NCBI GenBank assembly: GCA_030737835.1
Contig: CM060852.1
Location: 9,840,507 to 9,904,506, forward strand
Origin: Acorus gramineus
Taxonomy: Eukaryota; Streptophyta; Magnoliopsida; Acorales; Acoraceae
Direction: 5' to 3'
Length of the DNA stretch: 64,000 nt
The notes under the pieces are model-generated. The model was not told where the DNA came from, did no database searches, and saw only the letters and a list, made by a program, of their open reading frames with translations. The position numbers and the translations under genes are program-made. How positions within the stretch are numbered: the first letter of the stretch is position 1; each line of letters begins with the position of its first letter. This document shows positions 9,083 to 47,470 of the stretch, one piece after another.

Positions 9083-12000
9083 CTACCTTGACCAACCTCT
9101 ACTAGTCCTGCTGTCTCTATCTTTCACTCCTCCAACCTCTTGTTTCTGTAGCCTGTTATGCGGGACTGCTTTCTTAGCAACAGAAACACTTGACATCCTC
9201 TTGAACCTGCTGTTGTACACCTTCTCAATTTCAATCTTCTTATGAGTTCTCAACTCATTCGAGTACGTGGATTTCTCGATAAACGAAGAAGTTGGTGCGG
9301 CAAAATTGTTCTCCGACTCGCCTCTGTGAGGTCTTTTCCTCCTTGTCTCAATGGGAGGGTCCACCCCTCCTTTTAGTAGACCTGGCATGTTGTGAGTTGG
9401 TGGTCTGTTGATGGAGTTTGAACTCCTTAGTATATGAGGATCACATTCATTCATGGACTCTTCCTCATTTTTGCATGAACTTGCATGTTGTGGTGTGGCG
9501 ACTCTAAGTGGGTCGATGGAGTGTGATAGTGCCATGGTTTCTAACTGTGCTTCTCTCTCTCTCAGCTTGTTTTCAAGCTCCCTGACCTGCATTGTTGTAA
9601 CACATATATGAACAACATGTATTCAGAAGCCAATAGGACATGTATGGATGGTAAAGCGACAATGCAAGTAAAATATAATCTTTGTTGTTCTTTTCTAGAT
9701 TTTTCTACTGGTTTTTCTGTGCTCTTTCACTTAAATAGATATGATTCTGTTTATAATTCAGCTGAGATTTTCTATGATAAACATAAATATGAGAATGGGA
9801 GTGGGAGAGAGAATCTAAGAATGGATGAAGATAGTAGAGAAGATTTTATGAATTTTGAACAACCACTTGAATTTGGGATTAGTTATTTGATCTTCTAAAT
9901 AGTAGACCTGTCTAAAATTGACACCAACAGAGAGGACTTCATGTTGGAAATTGTGGAATTATATGTTGTTATAGATTGATTTCAACTGAGATTTTCTATG
10001 ATAAACATAAATATGAAAGTGGGAGTGGGAGAGATAATCTAAGGATGGATGAAGATAGTATGAAGATTTTAAGAATTTTCAACAACCATTTGAATTTGGA
10101 ATTAGTTATTTGATCTTCTAAATAGTAGACCTGTCTAAAATTGACACCAACAGAGAGACCTTCATGATTTTGGAAATTGTGGAAACATCCTTTCAATTTA
10201 TATGTAGTTATAGATTGATACAGGATAGGAGAGCAGCTTGATGAGTTTGAGATCATACCTTCTGTTCACCAACCAACTCTATTCGTTGTTGTTCTATTAG
10301 TTTCATCTCTAACTCCCTAACCTGTGAGTAAAACTTAAATGTTGTTAGTTCTCATACTTCATTCTCTCCTTTATTAATAGTAAAAATAAGTGTTACCAAC
10401 AACCTTCTGTTGAAGAGATAAGAACTCAGAATTTTGTTGCTCTTTGAATCTGTTTTCCAGATCCTTCACCTGCATAGGAAAGATACAGGCCCCCAGTTCA
10501 CAAAAAGTTTTAAATACAAGTGCAAATAAGATGTGAATGAATAATGCTTTTAAAAAAATGACCTTTTGATGAAGAACCATGCACATCTCTTCTTTCCCTT
10601 TTAGTTTCTCAGTTAGTTGCCAGTGTTGCTTCTCAGAATGACTTTGTTGCTCCATCTTTGACCCGAGCTGGCCCTCAAGTTCTTTGACCTTCAAAAAGAA
10701 CTCAATTGTTTTAACTAATGATAAACTTATCATGATCAGTGCAACAGTCCTTCTCATAAATATATATAATATATAAATATATAAACTACCTTGTCTTGTA
10801 GATTTCTACAAAGCTCATCTTTTCCCCTGACTTTACTTTCAAGGTTTTGATAGTTCTCCTCTAACTTTTTGAGAGACTCGTCTTTGGATCTACATTCCTG
10901 CCTTGCTTTGTCAACCTTCAAACAGTAAGAAAATATAATAAATTCTTAGGAACAAAGGATTTGGTAAAAAATAAAAATAAATAATAGTAAGAGAATGAAT
11001 GGATGAAGCCAACACCAAAACTTACCATTGTTTTCATCTTTTGGAGCTCCCCCATATCCATCTGTTTCTTTGCAGGGCCCAACTCTATACCCCGAACTCG
11101 AGTGGCAAAATTTAAAGAACTTAAAGTTTCACTCAAATCATTATTCGATGGGCTTATTTGCACAAACATAAGGGCTTTCGAGTCTCCTCCTACATTAAAT
11201 AAAATTAGTGTTCACTACTAATAAGTCATCACTAAAATCTACAAGTTACACACAATCTTATGCATACTCATCAGTGAAAAATATAAATTGGAAGTCAACA
11301 CCAGGAACAAATCTTTTAGCATCATACACGAAGGATGCAACTTTTTGTCTTTGTAATCAATTTCTGTTATGGGACAATTTCTGGCCAGGCAAGATGAATG
11401 CAATCAAAACTAGTATCGAAAAAAATACCTAATGAATCTTGAAGTAGATGTGTCAACTTGGAGTTTCTGCAAAATAAAAACTTCAAAAGTTAAATAAAAA
11501 ACAATAAAAGATTGGACTTTTCAAATGGATGCAAATTAGTCTCAAACCTATAAGGAATATGACTGCTTTTGGTCGCCAAAGCAGATATGACATCTCCAAG
11601 AGCCGAAAGAGATTTGTTGATGTTTTGAGCTTCCTTCAGTCTTTCCCCTTGCGCATCTGTCTTTGCAAGCCTTTCGCTTCCGGCCAAATCCACAAGCCAG
11701 AGCTTACTCTTGGTGCACTCTCCACTCATCAGATTCTTAGCTCTCACATTTATGCAAAGCAAGCTTGAATGGATGAACAGAAGTACCATCAACAAATAAC
11801 CAAATATACAAATTCGAAATGAACGAAAGGACAGATGTGAAATAATACCAGTGTGATCTACTACTATGCTCGTTGACATTATTAGATCCAACAGCCCTGG
11901 AATTACTTCCAGCCTGAAGTACATCCCATACTTCTTTTATGTCCCTTACATCAGCCTCTACAATTCCTGGTACATGGTGAACACCTTCAGCTGCCTGCCT

Positions 12001-15000
12001 CACCTCTAGCCTAAATACACATAAAATATGAATGTGAATTAGTTGTCTATTTTAATTCAAACTAAAGTTTAAGCAAATATAAGGAAAAGACATGAACTTC
12101 ACTTTTTGGTTGCTGGAGATGCATTGAGCAAATCCCTGATCTGTTCGTTGTATACTTCAAGCACACTAACCGATATGTTGTAGGAATTGGTTTCCCTCCT
12201 CTCTTCTGCAACCGTGAATAACTCCTTGAGGGTCCTATAATTGACACCTCTGTTCTTCTCAGTTCCCTCCATTGTGAATGTTTTCCCAGTTCCTGTCTGG
12301 CCATAAGCAAATATGCAAACATTGTAGCCATCTAGGACTGACATAACCAATGGAGAAGCATTGGCAAACACATCAGCTGTTAATGGCGAAAAGGAAATGT
12401 GTTAACTTCATCGATGAAAAATAAATTTGTATGGCGTCCTAATCATAGTGAACCTCAGTGTACCATCATGAATACATGTGCATGCTAGTTTAACAGACTA
12501 TAAATCAGGAAACACATAGAAGATTGGCATACCTTGATCATCCCTTGGGGTAAAGACTCGATCAAATTTAAAGGTCTTCTTTGTAGACCCACCAGTCAAC
12601 AATCCTAGTTCTCCATCCTTAGCAGCATCAAAGTCAACTGTGGTTACACAACCAGATGAGACTTCTTCCTTACTCAAAGGGCGGCATCTGCAAAACACCC
12701 TGATATTGCCTGAACATGACAAAAAAAGAGAGATTGTAAGCTTTGTCTTGTGGTTCAATAATCAGAACATCCAAAGAAAAAAAAAGACAGCATGCCTTTT
12801 GTTTCCTGAATTTCGTTATAGAGCTTCTTTCTCTTTGCCTGCTCCTCATTGTACAATAGTTTGAAATGTTCAGATTGAACAACTGCAAGCGACAAGAGGT
12901 GAGCTATTTTAATAGTCATTTCAAATGATGATTTTAGCATTAAATTTTAGTGCAGCTGCAACAACCCACCCAAGGCCTCTACTGCAGATATCATTTTGTT
13001 CAAGTCAGGAATTGAACCAGCACATCTTTTGGCATCTTGCGAAAGTTGGAAATGTTCTTGTTTCATTATCTGCATGAAAAACCAAATAGATATATAACAC
13101 AAAATGACAACCATCCGCAAAGGGCACTGACCATCCTGTTAATAGTAGGAAGAATCCCCTAACAACATTTAAGCTTCAGAGTAAATTAATGGTTTTGAGT
13201 TTTGACACTGGTAGTTAATGTTCTTCATTACCATCTCATGACCCACTACATAATTCAATGAACTTGTTATTTCAACCATCAAATCAAATGAGCCTATCTT
13301 TATCATCTCATGTTGAAATATTATTTACTTGGAATATAATTAACTTTTTTATAAACCTTCCAATGAAGTGTCCAAGTAAAATCCAGATTTCCTTGCAAAA
13401 TCTAAGCATGCTAATTATCTAAGAACAAGATTGGAAACTCCACTATTCATTATCCAGAAAAGTAATATAATTAGTTTTTTAATCCACCATTCTGATTAAA
13501 TATACATCATAAAAATTATAGTTTGTGTTACCTAGTATAAGGGAACAATCTTCCTTATACCCCATTGTTCAATACATGATAATCCATGATGTCTCCAGAG
13601 ATTTAGCACTTTGTAATCCTCAGTACCAAAAATAAATGTAATTAAATTATCCATCTTGTGGTAACCAGGTATGAAACTCTAATACAAATTTACCCTGTTT
13701 AATCAATATTTTAAAGTGAATTTGAAGAAAATTTAAGAACCTATGATCCTTGTAGAAATTTTTTTGACCCGTGTACAGTAGTCTTCCACTTACTAAGTAG
13801 TGCTAATGTGATCATTCAATTCAAATAAAATTTTCCTTGAGAAGTAATGTTCACGTTAAATTAAGTAATTTATCAAAATTGTTAAACTAATTAGGAATTA
13901 TTATCACTCATCAACATGTGCATGGGAACAATAACAAAGGTTGACACAACTTTAAATATTTAAAGAGTTCAAAATCCAAGAATTGGAATCCAGAAAGCCA
14001 TAAACCACGATATCATCAATTAAGATTTAGTCCTTGATGATGTCTCAAAATATCAAAGCAATTGACTAAATTACTCAAAAGCATGATCATAACAAGCATT
14101 TCTAATAATGCATAAATCAAACTTCTTACCTTTACTTTTTCCTCCAAATCACTGATAGACTTAGCCCATAACTTTTTGTCACATTCATAACTATAGCAGA
14201 CATTCTTCAGCTTCATTGTCTGTTGATCCATGGCTTGGACTATATGAAGGAAACAAATGATCAGGTACACCAAATCCTATGATATGCCATATTTCACATC
14301 TAAATGTTGATATGTTACCTAAAGATTCACTTTTAAAGAGTTTGTGATCAAGCTCCATCCTTAACTTCTCAAGCTGCTCATTAGCAGCTGTTAATGACAT
14401 CCATGCTTCATAACATTCATCTGTTTTAAGCTGGCACTGGCTCTGCAACTCCTGGATTTTCTTCTCATACTTTGCGTTAGGCTTCATTGTTCGAGTCGTT
14501 CTCTATAACCAAAAAACAGTGCCTAGAGTAAACCAAACACAATTTCTAATAATGAATTTCAAAAACTATTCATTTGCATAGTTAAGACTACGAGTCCAAA
14601 CCTGACTTGGAGAAAACTCAATTTTAGTGGAACAGTTGTTGCAGACTGGACACTCAAGATTTGGCTTTGGAGCTGAATTCCAGTGATCAAGATATATGTT
14701 AGTGAGCTTTTGATGAATCTGCCATTCTGCCTATCTATGATATTGATTTATACTATAAAAAAAACCTGGTAATGTTGATGCTCTTCTAATACAAATTCCA
14801 CATATGGAGGGGCTTCCACGAATCTCTTCAAACCGTACAACTAAAATGCCATCTTCTTCAACATGAATCCTCGCATCAACCATTTGCAAAGGTTTATTAG
14901 CACCAACCACCGCATAAATATCTAGTTCAGATAACACCTGCATAATTTTTCATAGATAAATGGGCTTTTAAAAACTAACATACAATGGTACTATTCAAAA

Positions 15001-16024
15001 CTTAATAAAAAAATCACAATTATGTCTAATTCTTGCCTTTTCTTCTTGCACAAAGACATCAAAGACCCTCATCCCCTTGGGCCCGTTTGTGTTGACAATC
15101 TCCGCAAAGTGCAAATCGATATAGTAATCCCCGGAAGACAGGCCCTTAAACCTGTAAGAGAAGTTTCCGAACCTTGCAGATTGATAAAGAGATGCATAGT
15201 CACCACCGTCGATGATACATTCTTCGGTTCTCAGTACATCCCCTCCCTGAAAATATGAATCACTTTCGATGTTCACTTGGGTGGTGTGTCCTTTCAAAGC
15301 CCCTCCTCCAGAATTCACGAATATCACACAATCATCTGCATTAACAATACATAATTAAAAACTCAAAAGATCATAAGATTAAAAGATTGAGGCCCAACCA
15401 ATTATTAAACTAATTTTGCTAGTTCTGATGAAAAAAAAAAAAAAAACACTTTTTGAGAGTAGTTTCTCTGAAAAATCTGGTTGAGAACAGCTTATATGAA
15501 AAAAAAACCTTTTTTGTAATATTGGTTCCAAAGGGTGCTTAAGGATTAAAGAACCCAAATGCCAATTATCATTTCCCAATTCTAATCAAATCTGAAAGTG
15601 CCAAACAAATCAATTCTAATATGAAAAAGTGAAAAAAAAAAAATCAAACCCAGATTCCGAAAAACCCTGATTCAAAACAACTCAGACCAAGAAAACCCAT
15701 TTTCAAAAGAATTAAAGAAACCCAAATCGTGATTAAACCCAGTCCAAAAACAAAGAAAAGAAACCTAAAACATAGAAGAAAAACACGGATGATGGATCCA
15801 ATCAAGAAAGAAGGGTCTCCCCCTCCCCCCAAGGACTTACCTTTGCAGGTGATCTCCTTGAACCCCGCCGAAACGAGCTTCGAACCCGGAACGCAGAGGA
15901 CCGAATCGTCCCCACCAAAATCGTCCCCATTGGAGGATGAAAAGCAGATCTTCGGGGAATTCATGCTGAATTCGGAAGCAGATGTTGGAAAACAAAAACT
16001 GCCGTTTGAAGGGTTCCAATCCAT
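9083..16024 (-). CDS. Kinesin-14 motor protein with N-terminal malectin domain (19 exons, 1,040 aa)
   Basis: A microtubule motor of the plant kinesin-14 group that carries a malectin domain, known from Arabidopsis At1g72250/At2g22610-type proteins. Exons (minus strand): 16024-15841, 15335-15037, 14937-14766, 14672-14602, 14502-14319, 14239-14130, 13069-12970, 12882-12796, 12709-12533, 12376-12103, 12010-11849, 11763-11548, 11466-11429, 11189-11026, 10915-10790, 10688-10563, 10469-10404, 10321-10259, 9586-9083; every phase closes. Malectin spans about residues 62-218 ([19 protein letters not shown]); a CPVC..C pair lies near 225-235. The motor begins near 403 ([12 protein letters not shown]), with P-loop GQTGTGKT 487-494, switch I NEHSSRSH 599-606 and switch II DLAGSE 632-637. 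Coiled coil lies before and after the motor; the tail is basic. Introns 2 and 8 use GC donors. The motor follows an internal coiled coil, as in minus-end-directed kinesin-14s; direction is inferred from family. Function beyond that is not shown. Confidence 0.93.
9762..10220. repeat. Tandem duplication (about 224 bp unit) inside the last kinesin intron
   Basis: Unit 1 (9762-9980) and unit 2 (9986-10220) share CTGAGATTTTCTATGATAAA, then TTGATCTTCTAAATAGTAGA, then CTAAAATTGACACCAACAGA at a constant offset near 224. They differ by scattered substitutions and a small insertion near the right end. Both lie between exon 18 (ending 10259) and exon 19 (starting 9586). The open frame at 9608-9898 (+) is only part of this repeat. 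Confidence 0.88.
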
Positions 16025-17759: not shown

Positions 17760-18002
17760 CACCAATTTTAATTTTTTTTAAATTATGCACCCTCCAAATG
17801 AAGTATATATTGTTATATAAAATGAAGTATATATTGAGATACATTAGTGTATTTTTTTAAGTTAAAAAAAATAATTTTTTTTAATATCATATACCATAAT
17901 AGAACCCAGACACTATGATAATGCAGTATATACCACGTTATCATAAAATATGAGCTGTAAGACGGGCTGCACTCTCTTAATAAAGTATATACCACGCTAC
18001 CA
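17760..18002. repeat. Dispersed AT-rich repeat, copy 1
   Basis: Contains GAGATACATTAGTGTATTTTT followed by AATATCATATACCATAATAG and repeated 'GCAGTATATACCACGTTATCAT' blocks. The reverse complement of the same order is found at about 63055-63240, so this is a dispersed non-coding element rather than unique sequence. Ends not resolved. Confidence 0.5.
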
Positions 18003-18523
18003 TTCACTTCTCTCTCTTTCCTTTAGCCAGGACCCACGTTGTAGAGGGAGTAAGTTGTCAAGGAATGATGCCGTAGTGTGGGCTTGCGGGCCCATGGCCA
18101 ACCCTAAGCTGATCCATGTGGAAAACCATAGATTTATTTCTTAGGTCTCTGACTCTCAATCTCTCAAATTGTGTGCAAATGAGTCATTTGACCCACACAT
18201 TATCTAATGTTATCCTAGGTCAACTGGGGATTCTTTTATTATACATGTTTCTTTTGCATAATTTAGGTTTAGATGGAATGTCAAAAAGATTAATACAAAC
18301 AGTATCAATTAAGCTGTTCTTTGGCCTCTCATGGGGTTCCATTAATTGTCCCAAAAAGTGCCAAACACATGAAAAGGTGGAGACCCAAAAGAATGTGAGC
18401 CTGTTGTGTGTGATGTGGACCCACTCCTCCATTTACCTACTTTCCTCTTCCTCTAATTTCCCCCACAAAAACAACAAAGTTGAAAAAAAAAAAAGAAAAA
18501 CAGAGAAACAGTGTGTGAGAGAG

Positions 18524-21500
18524 ATGGAATTGAGAGAGGAAGTACTGATCATAACGGATTCAATGTCTGTAAACGCTTCTGTGGTTGTGTGGGCCCTCCA
18601 GAATTTCTCCATCGGATCAAAGGATCTCAGGATCCTCACCCAAGCTTCTCTTCTGGGTTTGCCTCCCTTTTCCCTCCTTTAACATCAATAAAGATCTAGT
18701 CTTTTGTCAATTTGGAGACTTGGGTTTTGCTTTTCTGTTTTAGATTTTTAATTGGGTGTCTGTTGATTCCCTCTTTATTGGGTTTCTTAAGTGGAAAGGA
18801 TTGAAGCAAAGGTTTCTGTGTTTTTGGGCCTCTTTTTTGGCTTTGTATCTAGTTGTGCTGATTATATTGGTATTAGCTAACGTGGTTGTTGTTGGTATTG
18901 TTCTCATATAGATTTTTTTGTTTAGAAGACACTATTAACACGGTCACTTAATGGTACTTAAAGAAAATTGTATGTTTTTCTTGTCTAATATGTTGATGTG
19001 TGAAGTGATAAGTTTTCCTCTTTTACTTGTGCACTGGAGATTGATTTCTCTGAGCCCGAACCACAAAATTGTGAATTGTGATGTTTGTTGGGTACAATAA
19101 GTGTGTGGTTCTATAGCCTAAATTATGAAGTGAAGTTTGAATCATGTTTAGAACAGGAGCTTGGTTTACCCAGTCTTGATGACTATGTTACAAAAGCGGA
19201 AATTAATTTCATGAGTATACATTGGAAAAAATTATGAATTTATTTTGTGAAGAAGAACCTTTGAAGGTGAATCTCAAACTAATGTCACAGATGCTGTATA
19301 CATATTTAAGTTTTATTGTGCTACTGCTATGTTGTCATGGCTTGTATTACTGCTCGTTTTCTCCAGGTGACACTTGGGACATACATTTTATTGACTTTAT
19401 TTATCTATTCTTGCAATTATACTACTATTTCATGGTGGGTGAGATATAGAGCATAAAAAAGATGGTATTGCTATAGTAAGGATGACAGAACTGAAGGCGA
19501 GGAGAAGAGAAACAGAAGATAAAAGATTAGTTTCTTGTCAGAGAGAGGCGGTAAGAGAGAAATTGTTTGGTGTTGGGGAGGGCAAAGTTATTGGGGTTTT
19601 AGCTGGAGGGTTTAAGGCTAGATGAAACTTGAAGTAATAGCTTGACCTCGAATCTTCTTATGTTATTTATTACATTGAGCAAGTTTGCATAATAATTTCC
19701 AAAGAACTAACTCAATTTTAATTTTTTTGGTCAACTTTTAAAGGTTTAGTCATTTGGTTAACTCATGAAATCAGATTAAGAAAAATTTGACCATGAACCA
19801 TTATGAAAATAATGGTGAGTGGTGTGGGAAACCAATTTGTAAATTGGTAAGTGACTACAAATTTTCAGATTCTTGCGCCTGATTCATCGTCTCTGCTTCA
19901 TATCATTCTTATCTGAAACATTGATTCCCTCCAACAAATTAATTTTCTCATCCAAGTCCCCCTCCCCGCGTATGACTCCCTAAAATCCCATATATTTCAT
20001 ATTTTTCCAAAGGAATGATTCTTTGGTAATTCAGAGGTTCATGTGAGATGTTCAATAGGGAAAAGAGTGGATGCTTATTCCTCGGCTGTGCATTACTGTT
20101 GACCTATGGCAGCATGCAAGGTGAAAAAGTCTCTTCTAAAATTTGTACTTCTTAATGTGGGCCAGAGTGAATGCACAGCATAGCTGAAGCAGGCTTCCGA
20201 GGTTCTTGATCGCTTAAATGTAGTCTATCATACCAGTACTAAATGGTTATGCACTCCTAGTTGTAGCTCATCAAATGCACAATATAGTATCGTTGACATC
20301 AGCACTTGCTGCAGTACCAATAGCAACAATAGTAATTAATATCAGTGGCACTGGCAGTTTGTTATTTGGTGGTTGAATGCCTCAGTCAATTGTTCTTTCT
20401 TGTATCTTTTCTGGCATCATCACAAAAAGTCTCATATAGATAGTAAAAATGTAAACTAACAATTGTTAATTTAGTAGTAGTTGTTGTGGAAGTCAATTTT
20501 TGTCTTAGGTCTAATTGCCCAACACTGATCCTTGTTTGCATAACTTATTTGTATCCTTCTAGACTATGGTTCAGAACAGTGTAACTAATCTCTTCTTGCT
20601 TGTTGTGCCACTAAAATAAGATCATGTCATGAAGGAATGTCTATTTATCTGGTTCTAATTTTTGTTCATAATGAATTCTCCAAAGATGCACTATTAATTT
20701 GCATTATTTCTGTGATAATAAGAAATATAGTGTGTACTTTTTCCAGTTTCTTAAGTAGTTCGCTCATATAAATAAATAAACCGATTTGGTCTACTGCAGA
20801 AGGGAATTTATATTTCCAATCTTCATCATTGTCCGCAATTGTTTCAATCTCAGAGAAGCCCGGCTTTCACTCACAGCTATGGCTGTTAGCACTGGCAAAG
20901 GCACTTCAACCAGGTGCTTCAGTATTTGTACAAGAACCTTCCGTCTTTGATGACAACAAAATTGTACGTAGTATAATAGAAATCTGAAGGGAAAAAAAAA
21001 AATTTGGTTTCCAAAATTTTTTGCCACAATATATTTGCATGACAATATGACTCAAATTAGATGGTTAGGGAATCAAGGGCGTGTTTGGAGCGCAACCTTC
21101 TATTTGCAGGTTTTTCTTCATTGGAGGGCTCAGAATGTCTTGACCACTCTGCGGAGATTAGTCTGTCAACTCAAAAATTTGAGCTCATTGCGGTAATTCC
21201 ATAATCGTATGCCCATTTTATGGTCTGGGTGTTTCTTATTTTATGAATTTGTTAAGCATGAAATATGAATTTATTAAATAGGGCAATTTGCAAAAATAGC
21301 CCCTTGAAATAGAATATTAGCAAAATTAGCCCCAAAGAGTGAACATTAGCAAAAACTAGCACCGGACCCTGCCCAACGCTATTTTTTAACGGAAGGCGCC
21401 ATATATATGACACCTCTTTTTTTTTTTACCAAAATAAAGGGAGACGCCATAGATATATATAGCGCCTCCCTATATGTCCCAGGGAGAAAGAACTCTTTTT

Positions 21501-23325
21501 ACAAAAAAAGAAAAAAATAATTGAATCTCCACCCTTGAAATTAAAATAATAATAATAATACTATCTCAACCATTAAGTAAAGCATTTTTTTTGTGAAAGA
21601 GAGTTCCTTCTGCCCGGGACATAAAGGGAGGCGTTGTGTATATACGGCGTCTCTTTTTATTTTGGTAAAAAAGGAGGCAACAAAATAGCATTGACCGGGT
21701 CCAGTGCTAGTTTTTGCTAATATTCACTCTTTGAGGCTAGTTTTGCTAATATTCAATTTCAAGGGGCTATTTTGGCAAATTGCCCTATTAAATATTTGTT
21801 TTCATAAGTTTTATGCCTCCTAATAATTGGTGCAGATGAGAGCTAAGAAATCGTGTGACCAAAGTGCATCATCTCCACTTCAAAACAAACCGACCACAAA
21901 AGCTGAGAATCCTCCGGTTGCACATGTTGACTCTTCCACTCAAAGAAAAGCATTGCCGAAAGGAGAGAATTCTTCAGTTGGTCTCAGTGACACATCTCAA
22001 CAACAGACTGATCGTTTTGATGGTTCAATTGTTGAAGACATTTCATGTAAGGCAGATGACTCAAAGGGGCATGAACTCCCGCCAGGTTTGCTCTCAACTT
22101 ATTCAAGTGACTGACACTTCTAATATTTATTTCTTGCGAAATAATATATAATGAATAAAACCTAGAAGCTAGGAAGTTGCATGTGGCAAATTTTGTGATT
22201 TCTACTGAAGGGATGAATTAGTATACTGTATAACTAAATGTAGTTAAGAAAAGAAAGGGTGCCACTAAAACTTTAATTGAAAATGATGGAAATCGAAAAC
22301 ATTGGCCTTTTAAACAATCTTTGCTGATAATATTTTTAACCAGTCTTGAACTTAATTGCCTATTTGATGATGTAAATGTGGAAATTATTTACATAGTAGT
22401 TTGAAAAGTATTACCATATTTAAAACTTAAATCAATAGAGGATCATGATATAATATTGCATGATAACTACTATTAGTGTAACCAGGGTCAACCCTGAATA
22501 TGGATGGGCTAGATGGAGCCTAAATGAACTCCTAAAATAGGGCTCTGATACATATTCACACAATTTTGTACTTGCACTTCTTTTTCAGATTTGAGGGCCC
22601 TCTTGGGTGGAGGGTTCTAGATGCCCGCCTAGCCCGCCCAGGGTCAAAGTTGTCCCTGAGTATAAACCCAACCTGATAGTTCCATGGTTTGGCTCTACAT
22701 CAGTTTAAAGATACTTATATGTGAGCACAATTTTTAAAGCCGTGTGTTCGTGAAGGGGCTACGCAGACAGTATCTTCTTGTGTAAGCATGGGGCATTACA
22801 ACTTACAACTAAACTGAACCAAGACAATGAACAATTGAAGTACCACTCATGCATTCGGCATAAATGTGATTCATGATTTTGCACTGTAGTTTTATATGAT
22901 TGCTGACAAATCCTTTTAAAAAAAATGAAATAAAATGATAAGAATATCATTGCTTTGTTTTTTTACTTGTCTGAACAGTTAATTTTGCACATGATATCAT
23001 TCAATTAGAATCCTGATACTCTTCCATTTTGTTTTATTCCATATTAGACAACAGCCATTCATTAAGGGAACGCATACGGGAAAGGAATCGCCTGTACCAA
23101 CGCAGGCGCCGAGCACGGATGACAGAAGAACAAAAAAGACGAGAGAAAGAACGAAGACGTCAGTACATGCAGAGCCGAAGAGTGTTGCCTCAACCTATGC
23201 CGATTAGTTACGCAGCGCCTATCGAGAGCGATCAAAGTGCTCACTGTGGTCAACAGGTTCGAGAGACCGAAGGTGTCGAAGTGGGGAAAAGCCTGGTTAC
23301 AGGAGAGGCTGGTGAAGCTTCATAA
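18524..23325 (+). CDS. Anamorsin/DRE2-like N-terminal domain fused to arginine-rich STPR-like repeat (5 exons, 318 aa)
   Basis: Exons: 18524-18656, 20800-20963, 21061-21192, 21836-22085, 23048-23325; all phases close with GT-AG introns. Residues 1-143 resemble the methyltransferase-like N-terminal half of anamorsin (DRE2/CIAPIN1): EEVLIITDSM, then RILTQASLL (a near match to the family's IITQAS), SSSLSAIVSIS, ALQPGASVFVQEP, and CLERNLLFAGF...ECLD, matching the LERKLLLAGF region of the family. Residues 144-226 are polar and low complexity. Residues about 233-271 are strongly basic (RERNRLYQRRRRARMTEEQK), repeating with a 23-residue period, like the STPR (score-and-three) DNA-binding repeat; they would also serve as a nuclear signal. 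The CX2C-type Fe-S motifs that end true anamorsin are absent, so an electron-transfer role in Fe-S assembly is unlikely. Real function unknown. Introns 3 and 4 hold MITEs. Confidence 0.72.
21281..21785. mobile_element. Foldback MITE, Mutator-type, 505 bp, within intron 3 of the DRE2-like gene
   Basis: Inverted repeats of roughly 100 bp: left end GGGCAATTTGCAAAAATAGC, right end GCTATTTTGGCAAATTGCCC. It is flanked by identical 9-bp target copies TATTAAATA (21272-21280 and 21786-21794). Inside lies a second inverted pair around 'GGCGCCATATATATGACACC' and 'GGCGTTGTGTATATACGGCG'. No coding capacity. Shares termini with the element at 3254-3367. Confidence 0.9.
22483..22658. mobile_element. Possible hAT-type MITE in intron 4 of the DRE2-like gene
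   Basis: Left end CAGGGTCAACCCTGAATATG and right end CCAGGGTCAAAGTTGTCCCTG are inverted and share the GGGCTAG block a little inside. The 8-bp flanks AGTGTAAC and AGTATAAA match at 6 of 8 positions, consistent with an old hAT insertion. Non-coding, 176 bp. Confidence 0.5.
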
Positions 23326-24007
23326 AATGCTAATTAACAATAGAAGGCATCCATGTGTTGTTCTTGAGCAATTGTAAATTTGAGTGCGTTATATAAGAAC
23401 ATGTATAGTTTATCAAATCTATAGAAAGTGGGGTGTATGTATGTGAGATAACTAAGACACTGATTAATGATGATGAAATACTAATGAAGCATGATGTTTA
23501 TGATTGCAGCAATGTGTGATTATGTTAAATGCTTGTGTGATGGTTGAAAATTGATGATTTTTTATGGACAATTGTGAACATCTCAACAACTCAAGACCTG
23601 TTATAATCTTGTCATGGATCATCTGGATGTTATTCCAATATCATTTGTTCTTGGCCGAAAAACATCATTTCCCACGGTGAGGTGTGGTATGTTTATATTG
23701 AAAATCAAGCTATGTAGACCAGGTAATCATAGCATAAAATGCGAGTGCTCAATGTGCTGTTAAGTATACAATTCGTCTGCAGATATAGAATTGCAATTCG
23801 AATTGCAACCAATTCATTGAAACATTGACAAGTATATGTTGTGATCTTTTTTCAGATGAGAAACCAAAAATCCAATCATCACATTGTGACCCCATTTGTG
23901 TAGTACCTTGCATGTCAAATAATGTTCACTGACGTACGTTTGCTAACCCAAATAATTGCTTGCTTTGTCAGAAGGTACTAACTTCCACCTATGTCGATGG
24001 TTCTAAA

Positions 24008-24690
24008 ATATGAGAGAAACATACATAGAACCCCTCAAATATTACGAATATAATCCCTTGATTTTTAATTGAATTACCCCTGGCATTAACGCTCTGAAAC
24101 CGTGGTGTAGTTAAGATAACCCTATAAAGTTAAATTACCATATTATCTCATTCTCTCTTTTCATAACATCATATTTTATTTTCTAAAACACAATCCATGA
24201 AAGCTTCCTCCATTGCCTCTCCTCCACCCATCTACACCCCAAACACCACCTCATACAACACCCTCTCATGTGCCGACTCTTCGTGCATGTGTTGACCACG
24301 GGGATCAGCACGGTATTTAATTCGAACATGGACCGGAGATTCCCCGAATTGGGATTGAAAACGGAAGGAGTTCTCACGACGAATAAAAAATAGGACCGTT
24401 GGGAGAAAGAAAAATTCGTTCAGTGGTTTTGGGGGGGGGGGGGGGGTTAGAGATATTTTGGTCATTTTCAAGGAACTTTTTGAATTTCTATCAAATATAT
24501 AGGGTTATATGAATATATATTTTCGGGTTTAAGTCACAGAATATTCTTCAAAAAAAAGATGACAAATTAACTTAGAGGGTTATATGTTTAACCTGAATAA
24601 AAATTAAGGGGTTATGTGGATTTTCAAAAAAATAAAAGGTCTATCTAAATATCGACGAACTTTGAGGGGGCTTTATGTATTTTTTCCTTA
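24008..24690. mobile_element. Decayed inverted-repeat element
   Basis: The left end reads GAGAAACATACATAGAACCC followed by CTCAAA; the right end read backwards gives AAAAAATACATAAAGCCCCC followed by TCAAA. This is a plausible terminal inverted repeat of about 30 bp. I could not find a convincing target duplication. A piece of its right part (24611-24638) recurs at 25081-25110 at the start of the G-rich minisatellite. Confidence 0.45.
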
Positions 24691-25066
24691 AATGTTCATC
24701 ATGACATTTTTTCATATAAGATCCTATCTCATCTAACAAGCGTTTCTGAGTAAAACATTTCCTTACAAAAAAAAAAAAAAAAACATTCCTCGTGTGTCTA
24801 AAACATGTCACTTATATATCACATCTTTCAGACATTTTTAAACACAAACAATTGATATAATGATAAAATTATCATTTAAAAATTATAAACCCTTACCGAT
24901 ATTCTATATTCAATTTATCTAAGCTAAATCAAAGAATATAAGGAAGATTAATTTATAATTTTTCAATAAGAATAATTGAAAAAAAGATAATTAAACAAAA
25001 ATATGTTATTATGTATAGATTATTATTATACACACACTGATATATATGTTAAGATAGATCATTAAA

Positions 25067-25245
25067 AGGCCGAGTGGGGGGTTATGTGGATTTTCAGAAA
25101 AATAAAAGGCCGAGTGGGGGGTCACAGGGGGGGCTCCGAGTGGGGGTCACAGGGGGGGCTCCGAGTGGGGGTCACAAGGGGGCCGAGTGGGGGGCGGTGG
25201 AGCCGGCACAAGGGGGCCGAGTGGGGGTCGCAGGGGGGCTTCGAG
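25067..25245. repeat. G-rich minisatellite with GGCCGAGTGGGGG core
   Basis: At least seven imperfect units of about 20-32 bp, each containing C/T-CGAGTGGGGG followed by TCACAGGGGGGG or TCACAAGGGG. The G strand has many runs of four or more G, so it could fold as G-quadruplex. The 5' unit also contains TTATGTGGATTTTCAGAAAA, which is shared with 24611-24638. Confidence 0.85.
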
Positions 25246-25271
25246 GGTTTCTTCAAATGAAATGTGTAATA

Positions 25272-25351
25272 GGTGAGAGAGAGGGATAGGCGAGAGAAAT
25301 TATCAGGTGAGAGAGAGGGATAGGCGAGAGAAATTATCAGGTGAGAGAGAT
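25272..25351. repeat. Tandem 34-bp repeat (GA-rich)
   Basis: The unit GGTGAGAGAGAGGGATAGGC plus GAGAGAAATTATCA begins at 25272, 25306 and (partial) 25340. The first two copies are identical. Confidence 0.9.
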
Positions 25352-28162
25352 TACCTGTTTAGTCAGTTTCACAAAAACCATCGAATTTAATTTTCCACCG
25401 TTCGATTTTCCTCGACCACATCAGACGACTAAAACTGAGTCTACAACTACCGTTCAGCCTTACCCAATCGAGCCTCATATATATATATATATAACAAATA
25501 AATCCAAAGATAATGTTGATCATTACACCATAAGTACTAGTGTATGAGAGACAATTATCCAAGTAGGTTGGTTTGGCGTACATTCTTATATATTCATTCT
25601 GGAACACCTAAAAAATAATGTTTGCAATCATTCTTTCTTGCATTCTTTCTTGTATTCATTTTTTAACATTTCTGACAATTTTTTCATTTAACGAAATTCA
25701 TCGTATCCAATTTTTTTTTTTTTTTTTTTTGAAGAATGATATTCATCCGTATTTGATCCATTAACTTCTTTCATAAATGTGTGAGGTGTTTGCTGACATA
25801 ATCAAAGCTTTGTTGGCCAAATTCGGATTACTTAAAATAAAGAATTTAATTATCCTCCCAAGTCTGGTTTATCAAACTGTCCCTACATATGGCTCCACAA
25901 ACATGCCCATGTGTTGAAATATTGCATTAATGTATCAGGTCTGATACACTTTATCTTTGTACCTTTTGCAGGATCTAAATTTGCCATCCTTTTCATATCC
26001 CATGCCCCATGTGAAATCATTCACGTGGGGGACTACCAATGTATATATATAGATTATTTGATCTAACTCAATTTGATCTTATATGTATGCCTTCACACCA
26101 AAAAAAATTTGATCTTATATGTACGTCAATTCGAGTCTCAATATTAGGATGTTTGTTTGCGGAAGGGGTTTTGGTGGTTTCTGAATAAGAAACCAATATG
26201 TAACAGAATGGAAAATCTAGTAAGAAATGAAACAAAATCAAATAAAAAAAAGAGAGTTGTGAAGCATTTCAGAAAACATTTCCTGAAAGTCATATAAACC
26301 TTCCCATCGTGTTTCTCACAAAATTTGAGACAGAGAAATGGAAAGAAAACAAAAAATGCACATTCACATGAGAATACACATGCACAAAAAAATCATTCGA
26401 CACTTCGTTTTATAATGACAAACAATATATTAATCATGAGAATAACTTTTTTAGTGTAGTTCTTTATTAAAATTCAAAAATAAAAATGCAAGATATAAAC
26501 ACAACCTAACCCATCCTATAAATTTTCACTACTTTCTTTCTTGCCGGTTATCAAACGTAAAAAATATTATATGATATGCATATATTTTTATATTTCAAGG
26601 ATGTTTATCCACTCATATTGTATTGTTAATTCTTTATTCCATAACCTTTTTTAATTATCTTACGAATAATATTTGTGTTTCAACTAGGATTGAAAATAAA
26701 GTTTCAACCCAATAAAGAAGAGTGACATCACTTTCTAAAAGTGAAATTTTAGAAATATAAACTGAGATAAAAAGATAATATTGTGGGCGTATAAAATTTA
26801 CTTCAATTAGGTATTGTCATCTGAATAAAATATTTTTAATTATTTTTTATAAATTTCACTAGAGCCGTTGTTACATTTGCCTAAACAAAGCAAGCTGTTA
26901 CATCAAAAAAAACCTCCTGTTTTTGTTTCATGTTCCAGTCTAAAAAAAAAAGGCACAATAAAAACTTCTCCATGTGAATTTCATGTCGAACACGCCATGA
27001 ACAACTATTCATCCTTTTCATTTTTATATTGGGTGTCGTTTAAATTAAGACACTTTCATCTAAATTTAGTAGTTTTTTTTTTACATTCATGCTTGAGAAG
27101 CATTGTCTACTACTCAACGTAAATTAGTTGTATCCATTGTATTGTGTTCATTTTCATGGTCCATTAATTCATGCAATCATGAACATGTTACATTAGTGAC
27201 ATACGAGTCATGTCCACTATCATTATATCTTCTAAAAAAAACAATTCTATATTAGATATTAATTTTACTGAATTAATTGGTGTGTATTTTGAATTAGAAA
27301 GCGTGGTCCACGGGACAATAGTTCTAGCATGAGATCAATGTGATATATGAACAATATGAAATTGAACATAATTATTCAAGTATGCTTTTGGTGGAAATCA
27401 AAAGTCAATTGTCAGCTAACTTTGATGATTCAAATCAAAAGTTGTAGAAACAAATGAACCAGTACTCATAAAAAAAAAAATTGTTCAACAAGTACTTGTA
27501 CTGTGAGGATGACAAGTATATTATATATATATAAATATAATAGAGAGATCCCTGTCACGTTAATTGCAAAAGGTTTTAATTACTCATGTTTCCCATGGTA
27601 CAAATTGTACATTAATTCTCTGTATATTTTTTGAATCTATGTTTTGTAATTCTTTGATATTGAAATTGAATAGATGACATATAAGACAAGATGCTTCACA
27701 TGTCACGCGCATTGGCACATAAGACACACATTGAGACAAACTGCTGAGGTGTCACACAAGCTTATTAAAATGTGTTTGCTCTCCTCATGCATTTCTTTAT
27801 ATTTTGTTATTATGACAAAAATGATTTTGAATGTGCAGGTTGCAATTATTACATTTAAATAACATAACTTTCGTATTACCGTTTACACAAATTGCTACAT
27901 AAATCCATACCTCAGCGGCTCAGCCAGATAAATGAATTTGCTCTCAGTAGATTTCATACATAGCTAGGGCTAGTTTTTTATTCGGGTTAAGATAGATAAT
28001 TCCTCATTTCTAATAATTCAATTTTGATAAATTTAATTTATATGTGAAGTTTTTTTTATCTAAAATGCCCGTGAATGAACAAAAGAATGAATGAGGAAGA
28101 ACACTAAAATGACAATGAGAATGAATATTAAATTAATCCAAAATCTATTGGATTCACTTGAT

Positions 28163-29941
28163 CAGGGGCAGAGCCAAGAGGGGGGGGTGCCCCCCCCCCC
28201 CCCCGCCCCCCCAATGCCGAAACCATGGATGAAAGTGACTAAAAGAAAAATATGATATTTAGCAGTGAAATATTTCCTTGGTAGATAATATAAATTCGTT
28301 GGTAAATAGTATTTTTTTTTTTTAAGTAAAATTGGTAAATATTATGTGAGTATTAGGGTTGAAAATTGTTATATTCAACCTAGTTTGTAATCCCATTTGC
28401 ATCTCATACAATTTTTTTAATATACGCTTAACTAATTAAGTACTTTCCCTCATAAAAATTAAATACATACTTATATAAATTAATTGAATGCATCATGTTA
28501 ATTATATTTTGTGTATAAAAGATATACCTAGATAGTGTAATATATATTGGGTTATATGATTTTATATAATGCGTTAGTTACATTACTACAAATGGGTTGC
28601 ATTTTTTTTAAATTGGCAAGAAAAACTTGATTTAAGGGACGGTGGTTGAAAAACCACAACTATTTATTTGTTAATGACGGAGTCATCGAAGTAATGGATA
28701 ATTTAGATAAAAGTTATTTTTTACTACTTTTTTCACATTTAGAAAATCTGAAAATTTTATTTGAAATTTTTTTAAAAAAACTTGCAATCTCATTATTTAC
28801 ATTCACACAAAATTTTAAAAAATAATATAAGCTTGAAAAAATTTAAAATGAAAAAACAATTGATCACAACACTAGGATACCCTTAAAGCATATACTTAAA
28901 AAAGGAATTTTTAGTTTTAAGTCCCCACAAACCATCATATTTAGTGATTGATCTCTCCCTTCTTCGTATTTAGGTTTTAGTCCCCAGATTTAAATGATAG
29001 TTCCTTTTTAGTCCCTGAGAGGGATCTATCCATAAATTATTTAATTTACTTTTTAGTCCTTGTGAGGGACCTATCCATGAATTATCCTTTAAATCGGGGG
29101 ACTAAAACCTAAATACGAAGAAGGGAGGGATCGATCACTAAATATGATGGTTTGTGGAGACTTAAAACTAAAAATCCCTTTAAAAAATTAACTTCCAAAA
29201 AAGCCTGAGATATTCAAATCAGCGTAAATAAATAAAATCATTAACAAATAAATAGTTGTGGTTTTTCAACCACCGTCCGTTAAACCAAGTTTTTCTTACC
29301 AATTTCAAAAAAATGCAACCTATTTGTAGTCATGTAACTAACGCATTATATAAAATCATATAACGCAATATATATTACACTATCTCGGTATATCTTTTAT
29401 ACACAAAATATAATTAAAATGATGCATTCAATTAATTTATATAAGTATGTATTTAATTTTTATGAGGGAAGGTACTTAATTAGTTACGCATATATTAAAA
29501 AAATTGTATGAGATACAAATGGGATTACGAACTAGGTTGAATATAACAATTTTCAACCCTAATACTCACATAATATTTTAATTCATTTCATTACACAACC
29601 CCCCCCCCCCCCCCCACACCCTAAAAAAAAATAATAATAATTCAATTTTCAAAATTGTCTTTCCCTAGGAAAACTTTTCCTTGAGAATATTTACTTACAT
29701 TGCATAATTAATATGAAACTTTTATCTAAGAAAATATTTTACCAAGGAATATATTTTCGTAGGGGAATTATTTGCCGAGAAATGTTTTCCTTGGTAATAC
29801 TATTTATCAACGAATTTATATCATCTACCAAGGAAGTATTTCACCGTTAAATATCATATTTTTCTTGTTGTCACTTTCATCCATGGTTTCGGCCTTGGGA
29901 GGGCCCGGGCCCCAGCCCGCCCCCCCTTGGCTCCGCCCCTG
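28163..29941. mobile_element. Large foldback transposon (about 1.8 kb) with hAT-like CAGGGGC termini
   Basis: Begins CAGGGGCAGAGCCAAG and ends CTTGGCTCCGCCCCTG. The arms (left about 28163-28691, right about 29235-29941) are inverted copies that can be followed almost continuously, for example CCATGGATGAAAGTGAC against GTCACTTTCATCCATGG and CAACCCTAATACTCACATAA against TTATGTGAGTATTAGGGTTG. The right arm has about 200 bp extra (29590-29770). G and C homopolymers sit in matching places (28188-28210, 29599-29619). The loop contains a separate MITE. CAGGGGC termini are typical of plant hAT elements, but I see no clean 8-bp target duplication, so superfamily is tentative. Confidence 0.85.
28904..29178. 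mobile_element. Nested MITE with 'TTTTTAGTTTTAAGTCCCC' termini, copy 2
   Basis: Left end GGAATTTTTAGTTTTAAGTC and right end GACTTAAAACTAAAAATCCC. Flanks CTTAAAAAA (28895-28903) and TTTAAAAAA (29179-29187) match at 8 of 9 positions, fitting a Mutator-type target duplication. Nearly the same sequence as 5684-5955. It lies in the loop of the larger foldback, so it may have inserted after that element formed. Confidence 0.82.
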
Positions 29942-31452
29942 GTCCATATTATTATAAGCAATTCTTTTAAAACAAAAACAATGTTTGATAACTGGAGTTC
30001 TATTATATATATTTTATATTTTTTAAACAAAAAATGTATTATTGTATTTCAGGCTTCAGCATGTACTTATTTTTCATGTAATAGTTCTTTTTACAACTCA
30101 AAATACACCTTATCTCATGGCAATGAAAATCGTTTTGATAGTATTTCTATAATTTTATTTATTTATTTACAAATAATAGTTTGCTTACATTGTTATAGGT
30201 CCTCATTATTAAATTCCGGATACATATAATTAATCACAGATCTTGTACACACAAGGTAATATCAGGAATTTGAATTTGAAAAAAGGTCATTTTTTAATCT
30301 AATACATTTTAAACTAATCAAAATGAGACAAGTTGTCCTATCACTTCTGAGTGAGGTTTGGAATGATAATTTGTTACTTTTATATGAGCTTAGATCAGCT
30401 TTTTAGTTGTGTTAATCATCTCTTTAAGCATAAATAATAAAGGGAACTTTCACCATATTTTTTAAAATTTACATGGATTTTTTAGGTATATGTTTTTTAT
30501 TGAAAAATGTTAGACTCAGTCATTTTACCAATCAAAACTCAGATCATATATATTTTTATTTTTTTAAAATAGTAAACATCATCTAAGGAGGTAAATATTT
30601 TAATAAAAAATGTATATCGCTCTATTTTAAGTTAAAAAAAATTATTTTTAATAAGTGTAAGAAAATATTTAATAAGGCATATATCATCTAATTGTTATAT
30701 GTTTAATTAGATTTCTAATAAAATTTATAATACTATATTTGGGACTGTAAAAAGAAAACTGAGTGCAACTACGTTCTTTTTTATTTAAAGATATATCTTA
30801 TATGCAAAACGGAGAAAAAAAATCTGATATAGTATATAATTTGAAAAACTTTGCTAAATTTGACAAGAGCCAACACATCCGCGTGATCAAATCAAACAAC
30901 TCCTTGTCATTTCATTAAAAAATAAATAAATTATTTTCATTGGCATCTATCTACAAATAATAAATTGTTTCTAAACTTTTAGAAATTTTAATTAAATACG
31001 TGTGGCACTTGTTTATTTATGTCTGATTTTGCCTGCAATATATTCCAAATATACCCCTCAAATTATTTTCATCACATGCTGTATAGTTGAAATCTATGTT
31101 TGATGTTGATACGCCATGTCTGTTTTGCAGTGATTTCTACTGTCCCCACAATAAAGTAGGTTGTTAATCAATTTAAACTTTTCTTTGTTTTAAATTTTAT
31201 GTGTTAAAAACAGGTATTATAAAATAATTGATTGAAATAATTGTTTGTAAAAAAAAAACAATACTATTTGTAAATATTGATTTCCTACAGACTTTCGATA
31301 ACAGTCATTGCTTCTTTCCACCGTCGTCCTCCGCTCACCGTCCCCACCCTCTTTCTTTCTCTTTCAATTTCTCTCTCCCATTCATACTCTCTCTCTCTCC
31401 CCCTCTGTTCCTCTATCACAGAGTTTTGAATAAAGTGATGATTCCTTTTTTA

Positions 31453-46498: not shown

Positions 46499-47470
46499 TC
46501 ATCTCTGAATCACACGCGCGTTAAGCCCTTGGTCGGCCATGATCGGGAACCCAACGAGCACGCGCCAGAAATGCAGACCCTCCGTGATCAAGCTCCACCC
46601 GCAGTGCGTCAAGAACCCTCCAACCGCGTCGTGAGCGAGAATTCTGAGCTGCGGCACCCATCCCTTGGAGACTAGTCCTCTGTTCTTTGTCTGATCCTTG
46701 AACCCCTCCGGCAACCACATTCGAGCCCCTCGAATAGGATCCGCAGTCTCCAAGCAAATGGTAGCCCGGATGACTCCAGCCCGAGAGCCAGTTCGCGCAA
46801 TTGTACTGTGTCAAGCTCGCCTTCGCTGCCGAATGCAACATACACCACGGATGCCCGTTCATGCCTGTCAAGCCAATCAAGAATTGCTTCGTCTCCGCCT
46901 TCTTCAATGGTCTCTTGACCTGAAGGAGGGAGCAATCCAATGGGGATAACGGGTTTGTCGAGGAACGTTTGGAGGACATTCAACCAATCCGTCTCGAACT
47001 CGAAGCAGCTCCGGTGGACGAACAGTTGGCAGCCTTTATGGTGGACAGGACCCGCTCCCAATCCGACACACCCGATGAATCATACGCGGCGGACTCTGCA
47101 ATGCAGACCACCTCATGCGCGTGGTACGCCATTGTGGTCTTGAACGGCGCCCACTTGGGTGGTGCAGTGAGCCGCTCTAGTGATGCCTCGAACTCCGATG
47201 GTTGACCGAAGAACGCATGGGAAGCGGTGTTGGAGAGGCTGAAGTGCGCGCAAGGAACCGAAAAGTGCAACACCACGCGAGGGACCCAGTACTGCGCGAA
47301 GTCGAATATGATTCAATCGGGGCGGAGTGAGGATTCTTCAATGAAGCTCGCAAAGGGTCCCTCTAGACCATCGAAGGCTTTCTTCAGACACTGGGCTTTG
47401 TTAACTGGAAAGTCGGCGGTGTACTCGCCGGTCTCTGGTATGCCATGGACGCGCGGTAACTCCAGTGAGA
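46499..47470 (-). pseudogene. UDP-glycosyltransferase pseudogene, UGT91-like
   Basis: On the minus strand pieces of a family 1 glycosyltransferase are readable in order but in different frames: VSLELPRVHGIPETG and NKAQCLKKAFDGLEGPFASF (from 47470), a TGA where the family has Trp (near 47320), YWVPRVVLHFSVPCAHFSLS, then a frameshift near 47040, DKPVIPIGLLPP and ASVVYVAFGSE, another frameshift near 46750, and the PSPG sugar-donor box GWVPQLRILAHDAVGGFLTH...CGWSLITEGL (46550-46670). The DQ that ends the PSPG box is present (ADQGLNAR). The first 70 or so residues and the last 60-70 are missing. Such enzymes transfer sugars to flavonoids or triterpenes, but this copy cannot make a working enzyme. 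The several reading frames in the other strand are shadows. Confidence 0.9.

What the first reader, a model, noticed from the sequence alone, without database searches (positions are those of the whole stretch)
18524..23325. DRE2/anamorsin-like N-terminal domain fused to an arginine-rich 23-residue repeat
Seen: five exons with closing phases give a 318-residue protein. Its first ~143 residues follow the anamorsin N-terminal half block by block (ILTQAS, SSSLSAIVSIS, ALQPGASVFVQEP, CLERNLLFAGF). In place of the family's Fe-S cysteine motifs, it ends in a basic segment with 23-residue periodicity (RERNRLYQRRRR then KERRRQYMQSRR, with MTEEQ between). Known: anamorsin's C-terminal cysteine motifs carry its Fe-S clusters, and STPR repeats bind DNA. 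Inference: a methyltransferase-like scaffold may have been re-used in a nuclear, nucleic-acid-binding protein. I do not know of a described protein with this architecture.
Basis: partly seen in the sequence, partly recalled or inferred. Interest (0 to 1): 0.72.

Follow-up and report, generated by a model that had tools for sequence, protein, structure and literature searches.

The report
DRE2 duplicate with swapped basic tail
A plant gene that descends from a copy of the iron-sulfur assembly gene DRE2 has kept the front half but ends in an arginine-rich tail where the metal-binding end should be, so it probably works as a nucleic-acid-binding or docking protein and not as an iron-sulfur carrier.

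Summary
Five GT-AG exons (18524-23325, +) splice in frame to 318 residues. The same genome has two other DRE2/anamorsin genes with the Fe-S cysteine motifs, and the window gene is their diverged paralog: 29-33% identity over exons 1-4, intron phases 1,0,0,1 like DRE2 introns 1-4 at aligned positions. Both ends of exon 4 fit the ends of DRE2's linker exon, so exons 1-4 are one gene. No CIAPIN1 relic was seen in 18000-30000. In its place, in the same phase, stands one exon with a basic block (19 K/R, 6 D/E in 42 residues), without a start of its own. The search found no second copy of the gene and no credible sibling of exon 5. The STPR label is weak: 23 is the best lag, but not beyond chance once all lags are allowed. 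Most likely it is a cluster-less, neofunctionalised DRE2 paralog whose tail leads it to the nucleus or to nucleic acid. Transcripts, orthologs and structure could not be tested.

The parts
18524..18656 (+). exon 1, start of the anamorsin N-terminal-like domain (residues 1-44 and first base of codon 45), donor phase 1
   Evidence: aligned to the DRE2 exon ending in the same phase; 0 of 2000 shuffles reach its score against the C10 DRE2
20800..20963 (+). exon 2, domain core (EGNLYFQSSSLSAIVSIS..LQPGASVFVQEP), phase 1 to 0
   Evidence: 0 of 2000 shuffles reach its score against the C10 DRE2
21061..21192 (+). exon 3, end of the domain (CLERNLLFAGF), phase 0 to 0
   Evidence: 9 of 2000 shuffles reach its score against the C10 DRE2
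21836..22085 (+). exon 4, the DRE2 linker exon with diverged middle, phase 0 to 1; both ends fit the ends of DRE2 exon 4
   Evidence: start 7 and 13, end 20 and 2, both together 0, of 20,000 shuffles against the C4 and C10 DRE2 genes; whole-exon local score not significant
23048..23325 (+). exon 5, in the place of the CIAPIN1 exons; basic segment at residues 233-274, then a further tail and stop
   Evidence: in-frame coding score reached by 0 of 208 non-coding stretches; no start of its own
23050..23190 (+). arginine-rich block with a weak 23-residue repeat (residues 228-274)
21272..21794 (+). foldback (MITE-like) element within intron 3, not part of the coding gene
   Evidence: 98-nt arms, 93% complementary; matches its own reverse complement over its length at 73%

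Best explanation
A DRE2 gene was duplicated. The copy kept the first four coding exons (methyltransferase-like N-terminal domain and linker, strongly diverged) and lost the exons of the Fe-S-binding CIAPIN1 domain, in whose place it has a phase-1 exon with an arginine-rich tail. Shown by sequence: paralogy, shared intron positions, absence of CIAPIN1 nearby, an in-frame basic exon, no second copy found. Inferred: the protein cannot hold the DRE2 clusters; its basic tail acts as nuclear localisation and DNA- or RNA-contacting segment; its N-domain still serves as a docking face for a DRE2 partner, of which the monothiol glutaredoxin GRXS17 is the best candidate. It would thus be a nuclear adaptor or a competitor of DRE2, not an Fe-S electron carrier.
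For: Two other DRE2 genes in the same genome; alignment scores far beyond shuffles; HMM match; four of four intron phases equal, positions exact or, for intron 2, within one alignment column; both exon-4 ends conserved; no CIAPIN1 relic (best E 0.39, a 7-residue chance match at the exon 1 border); exon 5 has coding character and no start of its own. The profile of the window domain with this genome's DRE2s ranks the three human anamorsin N-domain structures first in the PDB (E 0.0011-0.0015). Literature passages: in human anamorsin the N-domain docks the Trx domain of GLRX3, linker lysines strengthen this, and CIAPIN1 receives the clusters (PMC6006191); Arabidopsis DRE2 is partly nuclear and associates with euchromatin and auxin-responsive genes (PMC6508740, abstract and passages); STPR and a basic region act together as nuclear localisation signal in FMBP-1 (PMC4821344).
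Against: No transcript or protein evidence. Only one genome: no orthologs could be examined, so purifying selection is untested and a decaying duplicate that happens to stay open is not excluded. In Arabidopsis, deletions that begin at Ile139, the start of the linker, abolish GRXS17 binding while TAH18 binding stays (PMC6508740); the linker of the window protein is strongly diverged, which speaks against retained GRXS17 docking. The window protein alone hits no anamorsin structure in the PDB (the recalled Arabidopsis DRE2 fragment does not either), and the profile hit leans on the two DRE2 rows. The Anamorsin_N score is below the curated cut-off. As a whole exon 4 is not significantly similar to DRE2 exon 4 (599, 103 and 72 of 2000 shuffles against C4, C10 and recalled Arabidopsis; its first 32 residues 32, 133 and 1 of 2000); only its anchored ends are. 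The coding-score null included the introns that also served as its background, which favours the exons, and another frame of exon 5 scores higher than the true one. The 23-residue repeat is not significant over all lags.
Confidence: 0.5

Rival explanations
1. A truncated, decaying DRE2 duplicate: exons 1-4 are a relic, and the basic exon is a chance open frame or a non-functional terminal exon.
For: High divergence from DRE2 (29-33%); a long branch, second only to human, in an unresolved tree; a foldback element in intron 3; no relatives found to show constraint.
Against: No stop, frameshift or broken splice border in the 957-nt model, which was of course chosen to be open; exons 4 and 5 open by chance at about 0.003 and 0.0016 at the local stop frequency; in-frame coding scores of exons 1-5 reached by 3 of 223, 10 of 218, 6 of 223, 3 of 209 and 0 of 208 non-coding stretches; GC of exons 4 and 5 0.44 and 0.51 against 0.27-0.35 in the four introns.
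Confidence: 0.2
2. Exon 5 belongs to another gene or is a transposon-derived exon; the real transcript ends in intron 4, giving a protein of N-domain plus linker.
For: Read-through of exon 4 reaches a stop after nine further codons; STPR-like basic segments are, from recall, common in plant transposon proteins.
Against: Exon 5 has no ATG before the basic block and its frame is closed at 23014; its acceptor phase fits exon 4 and is that of the DRE2 junction it replaces; no credible sibling copy was found in the genome, as a recent transposon would have (two weak matches, E 0.015 and 0.84, with stops; for 200 kb of flanks).
Confidence: 0.2
3. A true functional DRE2 of this plant whose CIAPIN1 exons lie further away or were missed.
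For: Exons 1-4 are collinear with DRE2.
Against: No CIAPIN1 match in window 18000-30000, and the two CIAPIN1 loci that the genome search found both lie in other DRE2 genes on other contigs (four candidates scored).
Confidence: 0.02

Closest known systems
DRE2 / anamorsin (CIAPIN1), cytosolic Fe-S cluster assembly
   Same: N-terminal methyltransferase-like domain, linker exon, first four introns and their phases
   Different: no CIAPIN1 cysteine motifs; basic tail in their place; 29-33% identity to the DRE2 proteins of the same genome
STPR domain proteins (FMBP-1, ZNF821)
   Same: basic segment in which 23 is the best-scoring repeat lag
   Different: fewer than two full repeats against four in FMBP-1; repeat not significant over all lags; the E4-R9 pair described for FMBP-1 can be placed in only one of the two repeats in either register (read by eye); no Pfam or NCBIfam match
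SAM-dependent methyltransferases (class I)
   Same: fold expected through DRE2
   Different: no Gly-rich SAM motif in the sequence; yeast Dre2 lacks it too (PMC3440578, passages)

Membership tests
DRE2/anamorsin | N-terminal anamorsin domain | tested here: met
   (below the curated cut-off)
DRE2/anamorsin | gene structure: introns 1-4 with phases 1,0,0,1 at aligned positions | tested here: met
   intron 2 is one alignment column off beside a gap
DRE2/anamorsin | linker exon | tested here: met
   both ends anchored; whole-exon score not significant
DRE2/anamorsin | C-terminal CIAPIN1 domain with two cysteine motifs | tested here: not met
   five scattered cysteines only. So it is a DRE2 paralog, not a DRE2
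DRE2/anamorsin | binding of TAH18, GRXS17, NBP35 | not testable with these tools
   needs binding assays
STPR domain | tandem 23-residue repeats | tested here: inconclusive
STPR domain | DNA binding | not testable with these tools
   needs EMSA or ChIP
SAM-dependent methyltransferase | Rossmann-like fold | not testable with these tools
   structure prediction was off; expected by homology
SAM-dependent methyltransferase | glycine-rich SAM motif (E/D-x-G-x-G-x-G) | tested here: not met
   absent from the translated sequence, read directly

The most novel reading that the evidence does not exclude
A conserved plant nuclear adaptor: a DRE2 N-domain freed from Fe-S chemistry and carried on a basic nucleic-acid-binding tail, which brings glutaredoxin GRXS17 (or another DRE2 partner) to chromatin, splitting off the non-canonical nuclear function reported for Arabidopsis DRE2 into a separate gene.
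Probability: 0.15. Interest if true: 0.75.

Novelty: new variant of a known kind. Interest (0 to 1): 0.5.

Why it matters
Arabidopsis DRE2 has been reported in the nucleus and on auxin-responsive genes besides its role in Fe-S assembly (PMC6508740, abstract and passages). A paralog that keeps the N-domain and lacks the Fe-S part would be a natural separation-of-function tool, and it would give the Dre2 N-terminal domain, which yeast can live without (PMC3440578, passage), a role of its own.

Tried and rejected
Relatives in bacterial and archaeal genome contigs and in viral contigs: none (33 and 11 pattern matches, none confirmed). NCBIfam: none. PHROGs and PADLOC were not searched. Window protein alone against the PDB: two hits, E 0.11 and 0.9, taken as chance. 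Pfam with the C-terminal part alone: two matches with E above 2. Similarity of exon 5 to the CIAPIN1 part of the C10 DRE2: none (670 of 2000 shuffles reach it). A five-sequence tree was unresolved (support 63 and 69), so the age of the duplication is open. The weak whole-genome hits of exon 5 (C3:20666228, E 0.115 with the whole protein and 0.015 with exon 5; C4:25188162, E 0.84) are basic low-complexity stretches with stops, judged by eye, and are rejected. Copies of the gene or of exon 5 in 100 kb on each side: none. Literature: ten searches (one search was badly worded; 15 of 37 papers listed and 12 of 18,817). None of the listings, nor the passages I opened in six papers, describes this architecture. 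The one 'Anamorsin-like' citrus gene (PMC11039969, one passage) is a name only. The library lacks most subscription papers.
Full report
The finding is real as a gene model. The neighbourhood is a plant nuclear genome: pieces of a kinesin motor and a malectin domain, a kinase and a tify domain lie in the same window (that tify is plant-specific is recalled). The window is C6:9840507-9904506 of a 398.6 Mb assembly.

What the N-terminal half is. Pfam's Anamorsin_N matches residues 30-138, below the curated cut-off. A CIAPIN1 search of the genome found two loci, on C4 and C10 (four candidates scored). I fetched both and modelled their exons. The C4 gene runs from an in-frame DALTMKGG.. through seven exons to a terminal DDI; of the C10 gene I modelled six exons and not the last. 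The upstream start exon of neither was resolved. Both carry the CIAPIN1 cysteine motifs and match CIAPIN1 and Anamorsin_N in Pfam, the C4 protein also below the Anamorsin_N cut-off (25.5 against 27.1 bits; C10 29.0). The window protein is 29% and 33% identical to them over 184 and 185 aligned columns (54 and 61 identities); local alignment scores of 105 and 139 stand against a maximum of 54 in 1000 shuffles each. An HMM without the window protein scores it 51.5 bits, one of the two DRE2s of this genome alone 36.5 bits, that is, a model built from both of them and nothing else.

Gene structure. The window gene's introns have phases 1,0,0,1; so do the first four introns between the modelled DRE2 exons. 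Introns 1 and 3 coincide exactly in the alignment, and intron 2 is a column off beside a gap. Intron 4 was at the forced end of that alignment, but the free full-length alignment puts it in the same place. Exon 4 as a whole is too diverged to score over its length (599, 103 and 72 of 2000 shuffles reach its score against C4, C10 and recalled Arabidopsis; its first 32 residues 32, 133 and 1 of 2000). Anchored at the exon ends it does: its first residues (MRAKK..KPTT against VKAKK..KPSS) are matched by 7 and 13 of 20,000 shuffles, its last (EDISCKADDSKGHELPP against EDSLLTEEDLKKPQLPP) by 20 and 2, both together by none. In Arabidopsis the linker likewise begins at an intron-exon junction, and the deletions studied start at Ile139 (PMC6508740, passages). 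So exons 1-4 are one DRE2-derived gene.

What stands in the place of the Fe-S part. No piece of CIAPIN1 is found in window 18000-30000 (best E 0.39, seven residues at the exon 1 border). The best continuation is exon 5 at 23048, in phase 1, the phase of the DRE2 exon it replaces; the alternative is read-through into intron 4, which stops after nine codons. Exon 5's frame is closed at 23014, its first ATG (23119) lies inside the basic block, its coding score is reached by 0 of 208 non-coding stretches (the introns used as background are among them, and another frame of the same exon scores higher), and its GC is 0.51 against 0.34 in intron 4. The protein has five scattered cysteines. Residues 233-274 hold 19 K/R and 6 D/E.

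STPR or not. 23 is the best-scoring lag of 10-31. At that lag alone 22 of 5000 shuffles do as well; over all lags 1468 of 5000 do. By identities the figures are 234 of 10,000 and 2649 of 10,000. FMBP-1 has four repeats with an E4-R9 salt bridge in each (PMC4821344, passages); here there are fewer than two full repeats, and by eye an E/R pair at that spacing fits only one of them in either register. 'Basic, possibly STPR-like' is as far as the evidence goes.

Copy number. A whole-genome search with the protein returns its own five exons and one weak match. A search with 70 of the 92 residues of exon 5 returns itself and two weak matches (E 0.015 and 0.84), which are basic low-complexity stretches with stops. 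So no second copy was found, and the tail is not visibly a member of a recent repeat family. The whole-protein search did not list even the DRE2 genes, so distant relatives may have been missed; the PF20922 search of the genome did not complete.

How it may work. In human cells the anamorsin N-domain docks the Trx domain of GLRX3, linker lysines strengthen the complex, the linker holds NDOR1, and CIAPIN1 takes the clusters (PMC6006191, passages). Arabidopsis DRE2 shuttles to the nucleus and associates with euchromatin and some auxin-responsive genes (PMC6508740, abstract and passages). A protein with the N-domain and a lysine-bearing linker start but without CIAPIN1 could still dock a glutaredoxin, could not take clusters from it, and would be drawn to nucleic acid by its tail. 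Against the docking step stands that in Arabidopsis linker deletions from Ile139 on abolish GRXS17 binding, while TAH18 binding stays (same paper); the window protein's linker is strongly diverged. The whole is inference by homology at about 30% identity. The main rivals are a decaying duplicate and a transcript that ends in intron 4.

Limits. One genome, no transcripts, no orthologs, no structure prediction. The tree of five N-domains is unresolved, so whether the duplication is old or the copy evolves fast is open.

Noticed in passing
window 21272-21794: A 523-bp foldback (MITE-like) element whose two halves are reverse complements fills most of intron 3; no second copy in 200 kb of flanks.
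   Followed up: partly
window 11490-15327, minus strand: Open frames with a kinesin motor piece and a malectin domain, by recall like plant malectin-containing kinesins; a gene upstream of the finding.
   Followed up: no
window 46521-47061, minus strand: Two overlapping open frames read like one glycosyltransferase broken by a frameshift; Pfam gave no match for either, so this is a reading by eye.
   Followed up: no
window 25060-25260: Short G-rich direct repeats and, near 24436, a run of G, seen by eye.
   Followed up: no
L003 and L004: This genome carries two DRE2 genes, 81% identical over the first four coding exons (155 of 192), whereas the Arabidopsis passages seen name one locus, AT5G18400 (PMC5324674).
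   Followed up: partly
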